Shown here piece by piece: positions 58,829 through 64,000 of a DNA stretch of 64,000 nt; position 1 is the first letter of the stretch; each line of letters opens with the position of its first letter. The stretch is from Marinobacter persicus. GTDB taxonomy: Bacteria; Pseudomonadota; Gammaproteobacteria; Pseudomonadales; Oleiphilaceae. The DNA is taken from NCBI RefSeq assembly GCF_002934325.1, contig NZ_PTIV01000001.1:124001-188000 (forward strand), given 5' to 3'. Made by a program: the position numbers and the translations under genes. Below the pieces are notes generated by a model, which was not told the origin of the DNA, made no database searches, and saw only the letters and a program-made list of their open reading frames with translations.

Positions 58829-60220
58829 ATGGAACAGAAACCAAAATTGCTCTGGCTTTCGGCCGACAGGCGTCAGAACAACATCCATCAGCTGCTCACA
58901 AACCAGTGGCAGCTGAACCGGATTCACCCGGGCGAGCCTCTGCATACCCAAGAACCGGAGTGCCGCGGCAGACCTATCGGTGTTTGCGATCTGGCCAGCC
59001 TGACACAGGGTCAGTATGCCCACATTGACCAGTGGCTGGAACACCTGCCAGCCAGCTCGTGGCTGGCCATTGTGCAGACCGGCCAGCTGGATCACCCCCA
59101 GGTTCGACGCCTGATTCAGGACTACTGCCAGGACTACCACACCCTCCCCGTTGACTGGCGACGCCTGCGTTACAGTCTAGGGCATATGTGGGGAATGGCC
59201 TGTCTGGGCAACCTGGAGGTCGACCACAATCGCGCCAGCTATCAACACTTTGCCTTGAAGGGGCCTTCGCAGGCCATTCGCCGGACCCGTACCCTGCTGA
59301 GGCGGTTTGCAGCCACTAATGAGCCGGTGCTGATTTACGGCGAGAATGGCACCGGCCGGGACGCGGCAGCCCACTTTGTTCATCGGGAATCGCGCCGACG
59401 CCACCAGCCGCTGGTCACGGTAAACTGTGCAGCCCTTCCCCCTTCCCTGACCCAGAGCGAACTGTTTGGCCATGAACGCGGCGCGTTCACCCATGCCCTC
59501 AAGGCCCGCAAGGGCCGGATAGAGGCAGCCGATGGCGGCACCCTGGTGTTGGCCGGGGCTGATGAGCTCTGCCCGGAACAGCAATCGGCCATTCTTCGTT
59601 TTCTCCAGGACGGGCAGGTGGAGCCCATTGGCGCCAACCACTCCACCCAGGTAGACGTACGCATTATCGCCACCTGCAATACCCCCCTGGAAGACCTGGT
59701 GCACGCCGGTCATTTCCGGGAGGACGTGATGTATCGGCTGGGCAACCTGACAGTCACCATGCCGCCCCTTAGGGATCGGCTGGAAGACCTGCCCGGCCTG
59801 GTACAGCGCATGCTGGACAACACCACCAACCAGAAACACTGGATCGACAACGCCACATTGCTGGCCATGGCCCGCCATAACTGGCCCGGCAACCTCCGGG
59901 AACTCCAGAACCGGCTGAGCCAGGCGGTGCTGCTGTCCCGAAGCCTCCGTATACAGCCGGAGGACATGGGGCTACTGCAAACCACGCCACCAATGCAGAC
60001 AGATCGTTATTCCCTCCAGGCCTTCCGGGCCCGGGCGGACCGGGAAGCGATCACCACCAGTCTGTCGCTCACGCACCAGAACATTTCAGCCGCGGCCCGG
60101 CTACTGAAGATTTCCCGGGTGTCGTTTTACCGGCTACTGGACAAGCACCGGCTGACGCCACCTTCCGCAAAAACCCACAACAACGCCGACCCCGACCGGG
60201 GTCAAGGAGAGACCTCATGA
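58829..60220 (+). CDS. VpsR-like transcription regulator with degenerate AAA+ motifs
   Basis: A 463-residue protein of the NtrC/VpsR group. ATG 58829 has GAGGA 8 bases upstream. The N-terminus (1-130) is receiver-like with a possible phospho-Asp D54 in PIGVCDLASL. The central AAA+ domain is decayed: Walker A reads GENGTGRD (Lys to Arg at 177), the sigma-54 loop reads GAFTHA instead of GAFTGA, and Walker B reads GGTLVLAGADEL without its Asp-Glu. A C-terminal Fis-type helix-turn-helix (ISAAARLLKISRVSFYRLLD) is intact. Like VpsR of Vibrio it may act with sigma-70 and c-di-GMP; that is inferred. It overlaps the next gene by 4 bases and faces the matrix-protein operon. Confidence 0.85.
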   Translation: MEQKPKLLWLSADRRQNNIHQLLTNQWQLNRIHPGEPLHTQEPECRGRPIGVCDLASLTQGQYAHIDQWLEHLPASSWLAIVQTGQLDHPQVRRLIQDYCQDYHTLPVDWRRLRYSLGHMWGMACLGNLEVDHNRASYQHFALKGPSQAIRRTRTLLRRFAATNEPVLIYGENGTGRDAAAHFVHRESRRRHQPLVTVNCAALPPSLTQSELFGHERGAFTHALKARKGRIEAADGGTLVLAGADELCPEQQSAILRFLQDGQVEPIGANHSTQVDVRIIATCNTPLEDLVHAGHFREDVMYRLGNLTVTMPPLRDRLEDLPGLVQRMLDNTTNQKHWIDNATLLAMARHNWPGNLRELQNRLSQAVLLSRSLRIQPEDMGLLQTTPPMQTDRYSLQAFRARADREAITTSLSLTHQNISAAARLLKISRVSFYRLLDKHRLTPPSAKTHNNADPDRGQGETS

Positions 60221-61248
60221 AACAGCTTGCCACTCTGGGACTGGCCGCCTGCCTCGCCCCCTTTGCCCACGCCGAACCCAACGACACTGCCACCGAGATT
60301 GCCTCAATCACCGCCGACCGGGGCATTGTCACGCAACCGGGACGTTTCACTTTTGAACCGTCGTTTTCCTATGCCCACAGCAGTGCAACCAAGGTGGCGG
60401 TGGAAGGCTATACGGTGATCCCCGCCCTGCTGGTGGGGCTCATCAATATTTCCGAAATCCAGCGCGATGTGTTCGTCGGCGCGTTAACCACCAAGTACGG
60501 ATTCACCAGCCGATTCGAAGCCGGGCTTCGGGTTCCCTATCTCAGCATCGAAGAGGATATTCGTGCCCGAGAGGCCTTTAGCGGCACCCCCATTGACACG
60601 TTGGAAGAGTCTTCGGGCGAAGGCCTGGGGGATGTGGAACTGGCGCTACGCTACCAGCTCAATGATGGTCTGGACGGCTGGCCTTACCTGATCGGCACGT
60701 TCCGGGCCAAGGCGCCGACCGGTGATGGGCCCTATGACGTTGACCGGGACCCAATTACCGGTACGGATGGAGAAGTGGTGAGGGACAAAGACGGCAATCC
60801 CATTGGCTACGAGCTGGCCGAACGCCCCACCGGCTCAGGCTTCTGGTCGGTGGAGCCAGGCTTGTCGTTCATCTACCCTTCCGATCCCGCTGTGCTGTTC
60901 GGCAACCTGAGCTACGTGTGGACCATTGAGGACGACCAGGGGCCCGAGAATGGCGGCACGGTGGATCCCGGGGATGTCGTCCGGTTTGGCTTTGGCATGG
61001 GCTTCGCCTTCAACGAACGCACCTCGTTCAGCCTGGGGTACGATCACTCTGTCATTGGCGAGACCACCTACGAGCTGGGAAATGACTTGTTTGCCGCCAA
61101 CTTCAGCCGTACCCAGGTCGCCTCGCTCGCCTTTGGACTGTCTCACCGGGTAACCAGTGACACCCTGCTGAGCCTGACCGTTGCCATCGGGGTCACCGAT
61201 GCCGCACCCGACACGGAGATTACCCTGAAGCTGCCGATCAACCTGTAA
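60217..61248 (+). CDS. Outer-membrane beta-barrel-like protein of the matrix locus
   Basis: A 343-residue exported protein with a clear signal peptide (MKQLATLGLAACLAPFAHA, cut before EPN). The mature part is rich in alternating aromatic/small strands (RFTFEPSFSYAHS, SRFEAGLRVPYLS, LAFGLSHRVTSDTLLSLTVA) and ends in LKLPINL, like an outer-membrane barrel. It resembles proteins called MetA-pathway or putative transporter (PF13557-like). FapF, the export pore of the Fap amyloid system, has a comparable form in my memory. Starts inside the end of the VpsR-like gene and converges on the matrix operon 6 bases away. Confidence 0.7.
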   Translation: MKQLATLGLAACLAPFAHAEPNDTATEIASITADRGIVTQPGRFTFEPSFSYAHSSATKVAVEGYTVIPALLVGLINISEIQRDVFVGALTTKYGFTSRFEAGLRVPYLSIEEDIRAREAFSGTPIDTLEESSGEGLGDVELALRYQLNDGLDGWPYLIGTFRAKAPTGDGPYDVDRDPITGTDGEVVRDKDGNPIGYELAERPTGSGFWSVEPGLSFIYPSDPAVLFGNLSYVWTIEDDQGPENGGTVDPGDVVRFGFGMGFAFNERTSFSLGYDHSVIGETTYELGNDLFAANFSRTQVASLAFGLSHRVTSDTLLSLTVAIGVTDAAPDTEITLKLPINL

Positions 61249-61254
61249 GCAGCG

Positions 61255-61716
61255 TCACGGCAACATCGGCAGGCCGGCATCCTGTGGCAGACGATAGACG
61301 TTGCCGATATTGTTCAGCTCAATATCCAGCTGGCGAATTTGCTGGATGGTGACGCTATTGAGACTGTTCTGAAGCACCGTCATCCAGCCACCATCGCCCG
61401 CAGCGCCGGTGGTCAGCCTCAGGCCGTCCGAGCCAATGCTCTGGGCCACCAAGGACTCCATTTGCAGCGACAGCCCATCACCGGTCAGTCGCTGGTTCAG
61501 GTTGGGAATGCGCAGGTGATTGATGACCTGGGTCTCGCCGTTCACGGCCACTACCTGCTCAAGCCCGATGGCAATCTCCAGTCCGTCCAGAAAGAAGCCA
61601 CCCCGCAGGGTTGCCAGTTCGGCATCCGACAGGGGAGTTTCACTCAGCCGCATCTCCGCCTGAACGCTCATGGCAACCAGAGTCATTGCCCAGAAAACGC
61701 CCATGTGTCGTTTCAT
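61255..61716 (-). CDS. Exported protein with double-glycine leader motif (153 residues)
   Basis: Starts at ATG 61716 with GGAG upstream. A Sec signal peptide (MKRHMGVFWAMTLVAMSVQA) is followed by LSDAELATLRGG (residues 29-40), a textbook double-glycine leader (LSxxELxxxxGG) of the kind cut by C39 peptidases. The next gene upstream encodes a C39-type peptidase, which starts the suspicion that this is its substrate. The C-terminal part has WMTVLQNSLNSVTIQQIRQL, matching the Q-N-x-Q module of the two other exported proteins of the operon. Function unknown; a matrix or amyloid component is proposed. Confidence 0.75.
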   Translation of the reverse strand: MKRHMGVFWAMTLVAMSVQAEMRLSETPLSDAELATLRGGFFLDGLEIAIGLEQVVAVNGETQVINHLRIPNLNQRLTGDGLSLQMESLVAQSIGSDGLRLTTGAAGDGGWMTVLQNSLNSVTIQQIRQLDIELNNIGNVYRLPQDAGLPMLP

Positions 61717-61720
61717 GGCA

Positions 61721-62413
61721 TCACCACTCCTGTGTACTGGGCCAATAAGGCAGAGTATGTCCCACGGACGGCCCCTCCAGCCCCTTGAACAGAGGCGCCC
61801 TCGCCAGCCCCGGCCAGTCGTCCCGGGCCAGAAAACTCGACCGGCCCTGCTCCAGATGGCTGCGAATGACAAATGCCGCGCCATCCCAATGCTGGTTGAA
61901 CTCTGCCCAGGAATAGGCCTTCAGGCCCCGGGCCGGATCACCCACCAGCACTTCGCGTTGGCTAATACCCTTGATCACCACAAAATGCCGGTAACCACCC
62001 AGGGTGACCAGTGCAATCACCGGCACCCGCACCCGCTCACGCAGGCCTTCCAATGGCATCCGGAATCCATCCGCCTGGTAACCATTGGCTTCGAGATATC
62101 GCTTCATATCCAGCATGGAGAAACCGTCCCGAAGCACCTTTTCCTTATCCGCCAGGGCCAGCATCTCGCTGAAAACATCCTGCTCTGTCACTGGCCAGTC
62201 GTAATGGTAGGAAAGCAGGGAAGCCAGAGCAGCAGAACCACAGCTGAAATCGTACTGTTGCTGATACAGCTGGGCAAAACGCTGATCCTGAAAGCTGGTG
62301 ACCGAAACCTCTACATGGCCACCGGCACCCGGGACCAGCACCGTTCCGGAAAAGGCGGTGGACCAGAGCAGGCAACCCAGTGCTCCTGCCAGCCACTGTG
62401 CTTTACCAACCAT
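61721..62413 (-). CDS. Exported C39-type cysteine peptidase (FapD-like)
   Basis: A 230-residue protein with an N-terminal signal or anchor (AQWLAGALGCLLWSTAFSG). The catalytic parts are QQQYDFSCGSAALASLL with Cys58, GGYRHFVVIKG with His143 and LVGDPARG with Asp159, the C39 triad with the oxyanion Gln five to six residues before the Cys. It has no ABC-transporter domains, so it is a stand-alone periplasmic peptidase as in the Fap amyloid system (FapD). GGAGGTG is a strong ribosome site. Its probable substrate is the double-glycine protein 4 bases downstream. Confidence 0.85.
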   Translation of the reverse strand: MVGKAQWLAGALGCLLWSTAFSGTVLVPGAGGHVEVSVTSFQDQRFAQLYQQQYDFSCGSAALASLLSYHYDWPVTEQDVFSEMLALADKEKVLRDGFSMLDMKRYLEANGYQADGFRMPLEGLRERVRVPVIALVTLGGYRHFVVIKGISQREVLVGDPARGLKAYSWAEFNQHWDGAAFVIRSHLEQGRSSFLARDDWPGLARAPLFKGLEGPSVGHTLPYWPSTQEW

Positions 62414-62427
62414 GATCCACCTCCGGC

Positions 62428-62766
62428 TCAGTGATTGATGAGAATGTTGATCTGGGTACTGTCCTGGATCACCACCTGATTACCCGTGTTCTGAATCACC
62501 GTGGCGATGCCGCTCATATTTTCGAACGCCTGGTCCGCGATCCAGTTGTCGCCGGTGTTTACCGGTCCTGACAACACATTGCCGCTCACCTCGGCATTCT
62601 GCTGGGCCTCATTCAGCTGCCACTGAATGGGAACGCCCTGACGGCCACTGGCCGCATCCAGCTGCTTAAGGCTCATGGGCTGTGCATCGGCCCAGTCCTC
62701 AGCAACAGCAACTCCGGGCATAACGGCGACCACAAGCATCAGTACCCTGTTCATGACTTTGGCCAT
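62428..62766 (-). CDS. Small exported protein with AE-SG and QN modules (112 residues)
   Basis: A signal peptide (MNRVLMLVVAVMPGVAVA) is followed by PMSLKQLDAASGRQG, which aligns with the double-glycine leader of the 153-residue protein (PLSDAELATLRGG) but has lost the second Gly. The C-terminus has NAEVSGNVLSGPV and IATVIQNTGNQVVIQ then INILIN. These align with NDAELSGTVSGTNV and GAFAQNAGVGSVTQ of the 320-residue protein. So it is a short paralogue, perhaps a nucleator or minor subunit. GGGAG lies 8 bases upstream of ATG 62766. Confidence 0.7.
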   Translation of the reverse strand: MAKVMNRVLMLVVAVMPGVAVAEDWADAQPMSLKQLDAASGRQGVPIQWQLNEAQQNAEVSGNVLSGPVNTGDNWIADQAFENMSGIATVIQNTGNQVVIQDSTQINILINH

Positions 62767-62825
62767 GACACAACTCCCGACAAGGGAAGCTGCCCCCGTT
62801 GGAGGCAGCTCGCCCTGTCTCAGCC

Positions 62826-63788
62826 TCAGTTACCGCCGCCTGCGCTCAGGTTCGACATCACGCTGACGTTGGCCTGGGTCACGCTACCCACACCGGCGTT
62901 CTGGGCGAAGGCGCCGACACCGGTGAAGTTCGCGGAGCCACCGGAGATCTCGTTGGAGGTCCGGGTATCAACCATGGAGCGTTTGCCGTTGGCATCGCCA
63001 TAGGTGACGTTGGTTCCAGACACGGTGCCGCTCAGCTCAGCATCGTTCATGAACACTTCCATCGACAGGTTCATGGTGTTCGAGCTGTTGTCTGAACTGT
63101 CGCTATTGTCGGTGTTGTTCGAATCACTGTTGCTGATCGAGCTGTCAGAGCTGTCACTGTTGCCGCTGTTGGCAATCTTGTAGGAGTCAGTGACGGTGGT
63201 GCTGTTATCAGAACTGTCGGAGTTATCCGAGTTGTCTGAGTTGTCCGAGTTATTCGTATTCGAATTATCGGAGTTGTTGGTATTGGAGTTATCAGTGTTT
63301 CCGCTGTCAGCCACCTTGTAGGAATCGTTCACACTGGTGCTGTTGTCGGAACTGTCACTGTTATCCGAGTTATCCACGGAGGAATTATCGGAGTTGTCCG
63401 ACGCGTCGGTATTGCCACTGTCGGCAATCTTGAACGCATCGTTCAGGCTGGTGCTGTTGTCTGAGCTGTCGGAGTTGTCCGAATTGTCAGTGCTTGAGTT
63501 ATCGGAATTATCCGTACTCGAATTATCCGACATGTCATTACCGCTATCGGCAATCTTGAACGAATCAGCAACGCTGGTGCTGTCGTCGGAATTGTCGGTG
63601 TTATCGGTATTGGTGGTTGAGTTGTCATTACCGGAGTCAGTATTTCCGGAATAGTTGGTGTTGGCTGCGGAGCTGTCATCCGCATTGGTGTTGGGGCTGC
63701 CATCGCCCCCCTGTTCCGCCATTGCATACCCGGAGATACCCAGACTCATTGCAATTGCAGCTGCCAGCAGGCTTTTTTTGGTATTCAT
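62826..63788 (-). CDS. Asn/Asp/Ser-rich repeat protein, probable matrix or amyloid subunit (320 residues)
   Basis: Exported protein with signal peptide ending AMA before EQGG. Residues 30-240 are very rich in Asn, Asp and Ser. Four copies of a 15-residue module (STSVNDSYKIADSGN type) occur at about 70, 112, 150 and 196, separated by DNSDNS tracts. The C-terminal 80 residues are less simple and carry NDAELSGTVSGTNV and GVGAFAQNAGVGSVTQ. No Cys, high acidity, low complexity: features of secreted amyloids and biofilm proteins. AAGGAC lies 8 bases upstream. First gene of the leftward operon. Confidence 0.8.
   Translation of the reverse strand: MNTKKSLLAAAIAMSLGISGYAMAEQGGDGSPNTNADDSSAANTNYSGNTDSGNDNSTTNTDNTDNSDDSTSVADSFKIADSGNDMSDNSSTDNSDNSSTDNSDNSDSSDNSTSLNDAFKIADSGNTDASDNSDNSSVDNSDNSDSSDNSTSVNDSYKVADSGNTDNSNTNNSDNSNTNNSDNSDNSDNSDSSDNSTTVTDSYKIANSGNSDSSDSSISNSDSNNTDNSDSSDNSSNTMNLSMEVFMNDAELSGTVSGTNVTYGDANGKRSMVDTRTSNEISGGSANFTGVGAFAQNAGVGSVTQANVSVMSNLSAGGGN
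63100..63640. repeat. Tandem degenerate repeats inside the matrix-protein gene
   Basis: DNA coding for the DNS/SDN tracts repeats units like GAGTTGTCCGA and GTTATCCGA on the plus strand, with four larger units (about 115-140 bases) that each end in the module for KIADSGN. The arrangement can change length by recombination or slippage, so copy number may vary between strains. Confidence 0.75.
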
Positions 63789-63887
63789 GATTCATGTCCT
63801 TTTGATGATATTGGCTTAACGGGAATCCGTCCCATCCCGCCGCCAGTGAGCGGGGGCGCCAGGGCACAGATCCGTAGGAATCAAAAG

Positions 63888-63904
63888 AGCGATTAGTATG
63901 CCAA
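63888..63904 (-). promoter_or_regulatory. Possible sigma-54-like promoter of the matrix operon
   Basis: The minus strand reads TTGGCATACTAATCGCT, with GG and GC 12 bases apart as in -24/-12 elements (TTGGCACG-N4-TTGCT). Two or three positions differ from consensus. It would give a leader of about 90 bases before the 320-residue gene. Weak; the neighbouring regulator has lost the loop needed for sigma-54. Confidence 0.3.
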
Positions 63905-64000
63905 CCCCACCAATGAACTTTTAAGCTTATGAATACCTGAACTATTTTCAACAACGTCCCGAATCCGAAGGAAAGCCAAAAAGCCTGAACCTGTATCACC

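What the first reader, a model, noticed from the sequence alone, without database searches (positions are those of the whole stretch)
58829..63904. Putative new Fap-like amyloid or matrix export locus
A VpsR-like regulator and an outer-membrane barrel-like protein converge on an operon of an Asn/Asp/Ser repeat protein, a small paralogue, a free periplasmic C39 peptidase and a double-glycine protein. Fap loci in Pseudomonas also combine a C39-like peptidase (FapD), a barrel pore (FapF), a main repeat amyloid (FapC), a nucleator (FapB) and further small exported proteins. The proteins here do not look like direct FapA-F copies, the order differs, and a dedicated VpsR-like regulator is added. It may be a separate amyloid/biofilm system in marine bacteria.
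Basis: partly seen in the sequence, partly recalled or inferred. Interest (0 to 1): 0.85.

Follow-up and report, generated by a model that had tools for sequence, protein, structure and literature searches.

The report
A second Fap-like amyloid export system
Marinobacter and 11 other bacterial genera carry a conserved gene set, related to the Pseudomonas Fap amyloid exporter but on its own branch, that likely secretes a different fibre-forming protein and whose free protease is predicted to trim a partner protein at a bacteriocin-style double-glycine tag.

Summary
The six genes are real and belong together. The barrel is FapF-family (profile E about 8e-51 to 5o65; its model matches FapF best) and the C39 peptidase FapD-family. 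The 153-aa double-glycine protein has a Sec signal (by eye) plus a leader with the C39 consensus L-12, E-8, L-7, GG; RGGF is invariant in 25 of 25 Marinobacter rows. FapE of fap operons shows the same register with Gly-Arg/Lys, so the open question 'what does FapD cut?' becomes testable. The repeat protein and its small paralogue share a C-terminal module resembling the FapB/C repeat but are not FapB/C. All six genes stand together in 24 of 25 relative loci (the 25th is decayed); four core genes lie together in 12 genomes of 11 other genera. Peptidase and barrel branch apart from FapD/FapF; one genome has both systems. Upstream lie a sigma54-type element and a palindrome found once in the genome, with a VpsR-like activator whose GAFTGA loop reads GAFT[H/N/S]A in Marinobacter. 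Best reading: a separate Fap-type secretion and assembly system. Export, cleavage and fibres are untested.

The parts
58829..60220 (+). REG: VpsR domain, AAA+ sigma54-activator domain with loop GAFTHA, Fis-type HTH
   Evidence: Pfam VpsR 1.8e-14, Sigma54_activat 1.4e-53; loop aligned over 33 regulators
60217..61248 (+). BAR: FapF-family outer-membrane barrel without FapF's N-terminal coiled coil
   Evidence: NCBIfam FapF 5e-45, positions 113-417 of 420; PDB FapF profile hits; Foldseek
61255..61716 (-). GGP: FapE-like exported protein with double-glycine leader
   Evidence: alignment A1; FapE N-terminus 8e-4
61597..61656 (-). GGP leader EMRLSETPLSDAELATLRGG; predicted cut after Gly40
   Evidence: leader profile; consensus of C39 substrates (PMC6363468 passages)
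61721..62413 (-). free C39 peptidase, FapD-family
   Evidence: Pfam C39 3.5e-20; FapD 3e-44; Cys, His and Asp motifs in the window protein
62428..62766 (-). SML: small exported protein, leader MSLKQLDAASGR at residues 31-42, C-terminal Fap-repeat-type module
   Evidence: alignment A2
62767..62825 (-). REP-SML spacer with predicted strong hairpin
   Evidence: z -3.8 here; 26 of 26 copies at z -2.1 or lower
62826..63788 (-). REP: signal peptide, 216-residue stretch 70% Asn/Asp/Ser, 80-residue C-terminal domain (about 62829-63068)
   Evidence: composition; module
63888..63903 (-). sigma54-type element TGGCATACTAATCGCT
63992..64000 (-). palindrome TGTTTCAGGGGTGATACA, likely activator site; it runs 9 nt past the window end
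   Evidence: only match of its pattern in the genome; like sites in 26 of 26 copies

Best explanation
This is an export locus related to FapD/FapF on its own branch of the tree, and it most likely builds a surface amyloid-like fibre from a repeat protein that is not FapC. Shown by sequence: barrel and peptidase are FapF- and FapD-family; GGP has a leader with the C39 double-glycine consensus and SML one like it; REP and SML share a C-terminal module resembling the Fap repeat; the genes travel together. Inferred: REP, SML and GGP would cross the inner membrane by Sec; the periplasmic C39 enzyme would cut GGP after Gly-Gly (SML perhaps too), which would license the barrel; the unfolded subunits would pass it; the modules would stack into a cross-beta core, SML probably as seed, with the Asn/Asp/Ser stretch left as a hydrated acidic brush. 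The VpsR-like activator would bind the palindrome and drive sigma54 polymerase; the hairpin behind REP would help keep REP the major product.
For: FapF and FapD families. Six genes together in 24 of 25 relative loci; SML-C39-GGP-BAR together in 12 of 12 genomes of 11 other genera, 10 of them chosen by GGP and 2 by SML. RGGF invariant in 25 of 25, RGG plus L/M at -7 in 38 of 38. REP and SML modules against each other and against the FapB/C repeat each above all 60 shuffles. In L139 two REP-type proteins are four copies of the module each. FapD activity is needed for FapC secretion (PMC5557850 passages). Conserved promoter element and palindrome.
Against: No experiment. NCBIfam cut-offs for FapD, FapE, FapF are not reached and FapB/FapC give no match. 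With Marinobacter rows alone the REP module did not match the Fap repeat (9 of 60 shuffles as high), nor the GGP body FapE's (7 of 60). SML against the Fap repeat is close to its highest shuffle (21.5 against 19.5). One module per subunit is few for a Fap- or curli-like fibre. Position -4 of the GGP leader is often not hydrophobic (Q 7, R 2, H 1 of 38), and SML and FapE have Arg/Lys at -1, unlike Gly/Ala/Ser of known substrates.
Confidence: 0.65

Rival explanations
1. Same exporter, other product: REP is secreted as a disordered acidic matrix or adhesin protein, held by its C-terminal module, and forms no amyloid fibre.
For: REP is 54-81% Asn/Asp/Ser over 142-316 residues in 26 copies; it carries one module only; the stretch is Gly-rich in L140.
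Against: The module resembles the Fap repeat and is repeated four times without such a stretch in L139; the whole Fap-type machine is kept.
Confidence: 0.25
2. It is simply a diverged fap operon (FapBCDEF) with a regulator added.
For: Homologues of FapD, FapF and, in the N-terminus, FapE; a Fap-repeat-type module in two subunits.
Against: Separate branches for peptidase (SH-aLRT 99) and barrel (98); G069 has both systems; no FapB/FapC match though the models work on L098; two convergent units.
Confidence: 0.1
3. A peptide bacteriocin or signal system: C39 matures a small secreted effector, GGP or SML.
For: Textbook double-glycine leader; C39 peptidase.
Against: The peptidase has no ABC part (230 aa); both proteins look Sec-exported; mature GGP is about 113 residues and carries an IQN...IQN motif shared with SML (29.2 against a shuffled maximum of 18.5). 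I did not search for an immunity gene.
Confidence: 0.04
4. The barrel is an uptake channel for hydrophobic compounds and the other genes are unrelated neighbours.
For: Pfam Phenol_MetA_deg 8.5e-9; the COG4313 channel 4rl8 is the next-best fold.
Against: FapF chains fill the first 18 places; the barrel stays with C39, SML and GGP in 24 of 25 and 12 of 12 loci.
Confidence: 0.03

Closest known systems
Fap (fapABCDEF, functional amyloid of Pseudomonas)
   Same: FapF-family barrel, periplasmic FapD-family C39 peptidase, FapE-type N-terminus, repeat-type module in two subunits
   Different: REP and SML are not FapB/FapC by NCBIfam; Asn/Asp/Ser stretch; barrel without coiled coil; two convergent units with a VpsR-like regulator; own branch in both trees
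Fil system (FilB-FilC-FilD, 'putative pilus' in NCBIfam)
   Same: C39 peptidase plus related barrel
   Different: lower scores than to Fap; no FadL-type FilD beside it, as there is in L061
Peptidase-containing ABC transporters (PCAT, LahT, ComA)
   Same: C39 fold and the leader consensus L-12, E-8, L-7, GG
   Different: free peptidase, no ABC part; substrate behind a Sec signal
VpsR (Vibrio cholerae) and BerB (Burkholderia cenocepacia)
   Same: VpsR domain (VpsR) and bEBP build; biofilm-matrix targets
   Different: VpsR acts without RpoN, BerB with it and with GAFTGA (PMC5552954 passages); here a sigma54-type element with loop GAFT[H/N/S]A
Curli (Csg)
   Same: idea of major repeat subunit plus minor paralogue (recalled)
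   Different: no csg-type exporter seen; Pfam gives no curlin repeat for window REP/SML

Membership tests
Fap system | FapF barrel at NCBI's equivalog cut-off | tested here: not met
   154 bits against 700, though E 5e-45
Fap system | FapD peptidase at NCBI's equivalog cut-off | tested here: not met
   151 bits against 330, though E 3e-44; L098, a fap operon by its gene set, also stays below (282.5), so the cut-off is strict
Fap system | FapB and FapC with about three imperfect repeats each | tested here: not met
   no FapB/FapC match at E up to 1; one repeat-type module each in REP and SML
Fap system | FapE | tested here: inconclusive
   N-terminus only: 8e-4, leader 33.6 against shuffled maximum 24.4; body not significant, 7 of 60
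Fap system | FapF N-terminal coiled coil | tested here: not met
   match starts at model position 113; by eye 6 of 12 barrels of other genera with this system do have such a stretch
Fap system | single fapABCDEF-type operon | tested here: not met
   two convergent units
Fap system | extracellular amyloid fibre | not testable with these tools
   needs staining, EM and deletion strains
Fil system | FilB/FilC as best family and FilD beside them | tested here: not met
   Fap models score higher; no FilD-like ORF seen by eye next to the locus in L004
Peptidase-containing ABC transporter | C39 domain fused to membrane and ATPase domains | tested here: not met
   230 aa, C39 only
Double-glycine leader substrate | L-12, E-8, L-7 and Gly-Gly | tested here: met
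   GGP: window LSDAELATLRGG; 38 rows
Double-glycine leader substrate | cleavage by the C39 enzyme | not testable with these tools
   needs N-terminal sequencing
VpsR-type regulator | VpsR domain | tested here: met
   E 1.8e-14
VpsR-type regulator | RpoN-independent action, c-di-GMP binding | tested here: inconclusive
   a conserved sigma54-type element speaks for RpoN; c-di-GMP binding not tested

The most novel reading that the evidence does not exclude
A separate family of amyloid secretion systems in which a periplasmic C39 peptidase matures Sec-exported subunits at bacteriocin-type double-glycine leaders, FapE being the Fap counterpart and hence FapD's substrate; its fibre is made of one-module subunits with an Asn/Asp/Ser bristle, and its dedicated activator has changed the GAFTGA loop along with a base of its own sigma54 promoter.
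Probability: 0.4. Interest if true: 0.8.

Novelty: new variant of a known kind. Interest (0 to 1): 0.68.

Why it matters
FapD activity is needed for FapC secretion, yet PMC5557850 and PMC6173800 (passages) leave its substrate open (FapE is their suspect) and say Fap proteins lack canonical C39 sequences. Here a related peptidase sits beside a subunit with the textbook leader, and the same register with Gly-Arg/Lys is found in FapE, 7 sequences above NCBI's cut-off among them. That turns the question into a short mutant experiment. It also adds a second family of Fap-type systems with subunits of another build, one module plus a long disordered acidic stretch, for asking which parts of a functional amyloid are needed.

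Tried and rejected
FapB/FapC membership of REP and SML: no match at E up to 1, although the models work on the control L098. REP module from Marinobacter alone against Fap repeats: 9 of 60 shuffles as high. GGP body against FapE body: 7 of 60. Model of GGP: mean pLDDT 55, not interpreted. Pfam on relatives of REP/SML/GGP: nothing useful. Reading REG as sigma54-independent because of GAFTHA: dropped when the upstream alignment showed a conserved sigma54-type element; my patterns had missed it in Marinobacter because they demanded a usual second half. The element alone is not special in the genome: TGGCAYR-N4-TCGCW occurs 6 times, the TTGC form once; its conserved place is the evidence. Loop and promoter differ together, but in Marinobacter this is probably one inherited event, and L143/L144 (GAFTNA) keep T at that promoter position, so covariation is not claimed as shown. 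The His pattern was too strict (17 of 28 Marinobacter peptidases); its Cys pattern was met in 28 of 28. Not in the held library: searches; two recent FapC papers (PMC12392863, PMC12822426) were seen as listings only.
Full report
What is there. The window ends in six genes. Regulator REG (58829-60220) and barrel BAR (60217-61248) form one + strand unit. Repeat protein REP (62826-63788), small protein SML (62428-62766), C39 peptidase (61721-62413) and double-glycine protein GGP (61255-61716) form the opposite unit. These short names are mine. The window is bases 124001-188000 of contig C1 of G000; the four named relatives fetched are Marinobacter.

Family tests. BAR matches NCBIfam FapF (E 5e-45) ahead of FilC (1e-15); the peptidase matches FapD (3e-44) ahead of FilB (2e-30); GGP residues 2-53 match positions 1-52 of FapE (8e-4). 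None reaches its cut-off, and REP and SML match neither FapB nor FapC. A BAR profile (26 rows, one of them the barrel of L071) finds the four FapF sequences of the PDB at E 5e-51 to 4e-50. An AlphaFold2 model of BAR (51 rows, mean pLDDT 66, pTM 0.65) finds FapF chains in its first 18 places (best E 6.6e-23, TM 0.68/0.79), then the COG4313 channel. FapF's coiled-coil N-terminus is missing here; by eye 6 of 12 barrels of this system from other genera have a long charged N-terminal stretch of that kind.

Co-conservation. Relative loci were picked by their C39 match. All six genes are found together, in the same arrangement, in 24 of 25 (L036-L060); in L050 the REP frame lacks its signal-peptide end as I read it. 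In L060 barrel, peptidase, GGP, SML and REP are all short pieces while REG is full length. L052 has REP-SML-C39-GGP twice in tandem. In the same genus 21 of 36 genomes have a close C39 relative and 15 do not. A GGP profile hit 11 of 369 genomes of the class, our own included. The 10 others (9 genera) and two genomes found through SML were read: 12 genomes of 11 genera. SML, C39, GGP and BAR lie together in 12 of 12, REG in 6 of 12. A REP-type protein shows by profile in 8 of 12 and by eye in L138, L139 and L140; I saw none in L137. One further weak SML match, G432, was not read. A wider GGP profile hit 16 of 398 genomes of the phylum: 4 are of this genus, 2 (G069, G129) had been read, 10 were not read.

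A separate branch. fap operons for comparison came from a FapE-model search (15 of 369 genomes; 14 regions read). In the peptidase tree (68 rows) the 40 rows of this system are one side of a branch with SH-aLRT 99; 13 FapD rows are another with 93. In the barrel tree (65 rows) the figures are 98 (39 rows) and 95 (12 FapF rows). These are quick trees rooted at the midpoint; the join with FapD has support 59, and 'Fil' labels other than L061 are by position in the search, not by test. Genome G069 has both a fap operon (L100) and this system (L140).

The leader. GGP is a Sec signal (by eye, ending near Ala20) followed by EMRLSETPLSDAELATLRGG|F. RGGF and the leucine at -7 are invariant in 25 of 25 rows. 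Over 38 GGP rows (26 Marinobacter copies, 12 other genomes, aligned on RGG[FL] alone) -12 is L, V, M or I in 38, -8 is E in 29, -7 is L or M in 38; -4 is L in 16, Y in 9, Q in 7. The known recognition sequence is Leu(-12), Glu(-8), Leu(-7) before Gly-Gly/Ala/Ser, with Val, Leu or Ile usual at -4 (PMC6363468, passages). So -4 fits only in part. SML has the same register but Gly-Arg. In the six-frame translation of the window (127,996 codons) a loose pattern, written after seeing the two proteins, occurs twice: in SML and GGP. FapE shows the register too: 14 of 14 rows of the class and 16 of 18 loci of a second draw (398 genomes, 20 with a match), 7 of 7 above NCBI's cut-off among them. The pattern already demanded -7 and -4 to +1; the free evidence is -12 L/I/V 16 of 16, -10 D/E 16 of 16, -8 E 15 of 16. 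FapE and SML have Arg/Lys at -1, unusual for C39. GGP and FapE leaders align above all 60 column shuffles (33.6 against 24.4 at most). PMC5557850 reports that a FapD active-site mutant abolishes FapC secretion, that FapE alone seems N-terminally processed (no peptides in about its first 70 residues) and that FapD's target is unclear (passages). The leader offers a site; it would account for only part of those 70 residues. That GGP or FapE is cut there is inferred.

The cargo. Over 26 copies REP has a stretch of 142-316 residues, 54-81% Asn/Asp/Ser, and a C-terminal domain of 78-85 residues. In L140 the stretch is Gly-rich; in L139 two REP-type proteins hold four module copies each. With cross-genus rows the REP module matches SML's (35.8, shuffled maximum 12.7) and the FapB/C repeat (24.8, maximum 12.5), and SML matches the FapB/C repeat (21.5, maximum 19.5), each 0 of 60 (7 of 26 Marinobacter rows used, one row of another genus cut wrongly). 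Without other genera REP against the Fap repeat was not significant. I take this as good evidence for one Fap-repeat-type module per subunit and moderate evidence for amyloid.

Control. Upstream of REP, 24 of 26 Marinobacter copies have TGGCAYR-N4-TCGC[AT], 107-130 nt before the start codon (L050, with a guessed start, excepted); L042 and L046 read TGGC in the second half. About 105 nt further up lies TGTTTCA-N4-TGAAACA, met at 12 or more of 14 bases in 26 of 26 (the consensus comes from these same sequences). In G000 the pattern TGTTTCA-N3-6-TGAWACA occurs once, here. Of the six other-genus loci with REG, five have a REP start I could use and all five show a sigma54-type site by a loose pattern; of five loci without REG one does. 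REG's loop has H, N or S in place of the second G of GAFTGA in 25 of 25 Marinobacter regulators, G in 4 of 6 from other genera, N in 2. VpsR acts without RpoN and BerB with it (PMC5552954, passages); a bEBP lacking GAFTGA is reported to act on sigma70 promoters, VpsR being named as another (PMC10274813, passages); the loop contacts sigma54 and promoter DNA near -12 (PMC9770992, passages). Here the element speaks for sigma54. Between REP and SML a hairpin is predicted in 26 of 26 copies (z -2.1 or lower, mean -3.4, against 100 single-base shuffles each), which fits REP as major product (inferred).

Verdict. A Fap-type secretion and assembly system, related to Fap but not filed as a member: repeat subunits, arrangement and regulator differ and the Fap cut-offs tested are not met. 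PMC6173800 already notes fapD-fapF pairs in five more phyla (passages), so the pair as such is not new; this system's cargo, leader and control are what is added. No description of it turned up in the held library. Export, cleavage and fibres are predictions.

Noticed in passing
L071:7431-12542 (genome G003): A further C39-barrel operon: FapF-like barrel with coiled-coil N-terminus (E 8.5e-38), C39 peptidase, and three exported proteins (398, 517, 151 aa) without NCBIfam match whose starts also read like leaders (e.g. PLDDATLHTITAG).
   Followed up: partly
L061:8144-12734 and similar loci L062-L069: Fil-like locus: L061 has FilB (5e-81), FilC (2e-102) and a FadL-type FilD (4e-162) relative; C39-barrel pairs like it stand in L062-L069 of the same genus, not tested with those models.
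   Followed up: partly
L052:5988-11370 (genome G014): Tandem duplication of REP-SML-C39-GGP with differing REP copies, each with its own promoter-type element and palindrome.
   Followed up: no
L060 (genome G006): Decayed copy: barrel, peptidase, GGP, SML and REP are short pieces, REG is full length.
   Followed up: no
window 58829-60220 and 63888-63903: Activator loop GAFT[H/N/S]A together with TCGC in place of TTGC in the conserved sigma54-type element of Marinobacter; possibly a matched change of activator and promoter.
   Followed up: partly
P0135 (relative of SML): One source names this SML relative with words beginning 'Curlin associated repea', although Pfam finds no curlin repeat in the window's SML.
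   Followed up: no
G000:C24:25485-25862 (L003) and G000:C48:7708-8103 (L002): Two other C39-type matches in the own genome: a 364-aa frame (E 9e-9) and a 736-aa frame (E 5.5e-18) of ABC-transporter length.
   Followed up: no
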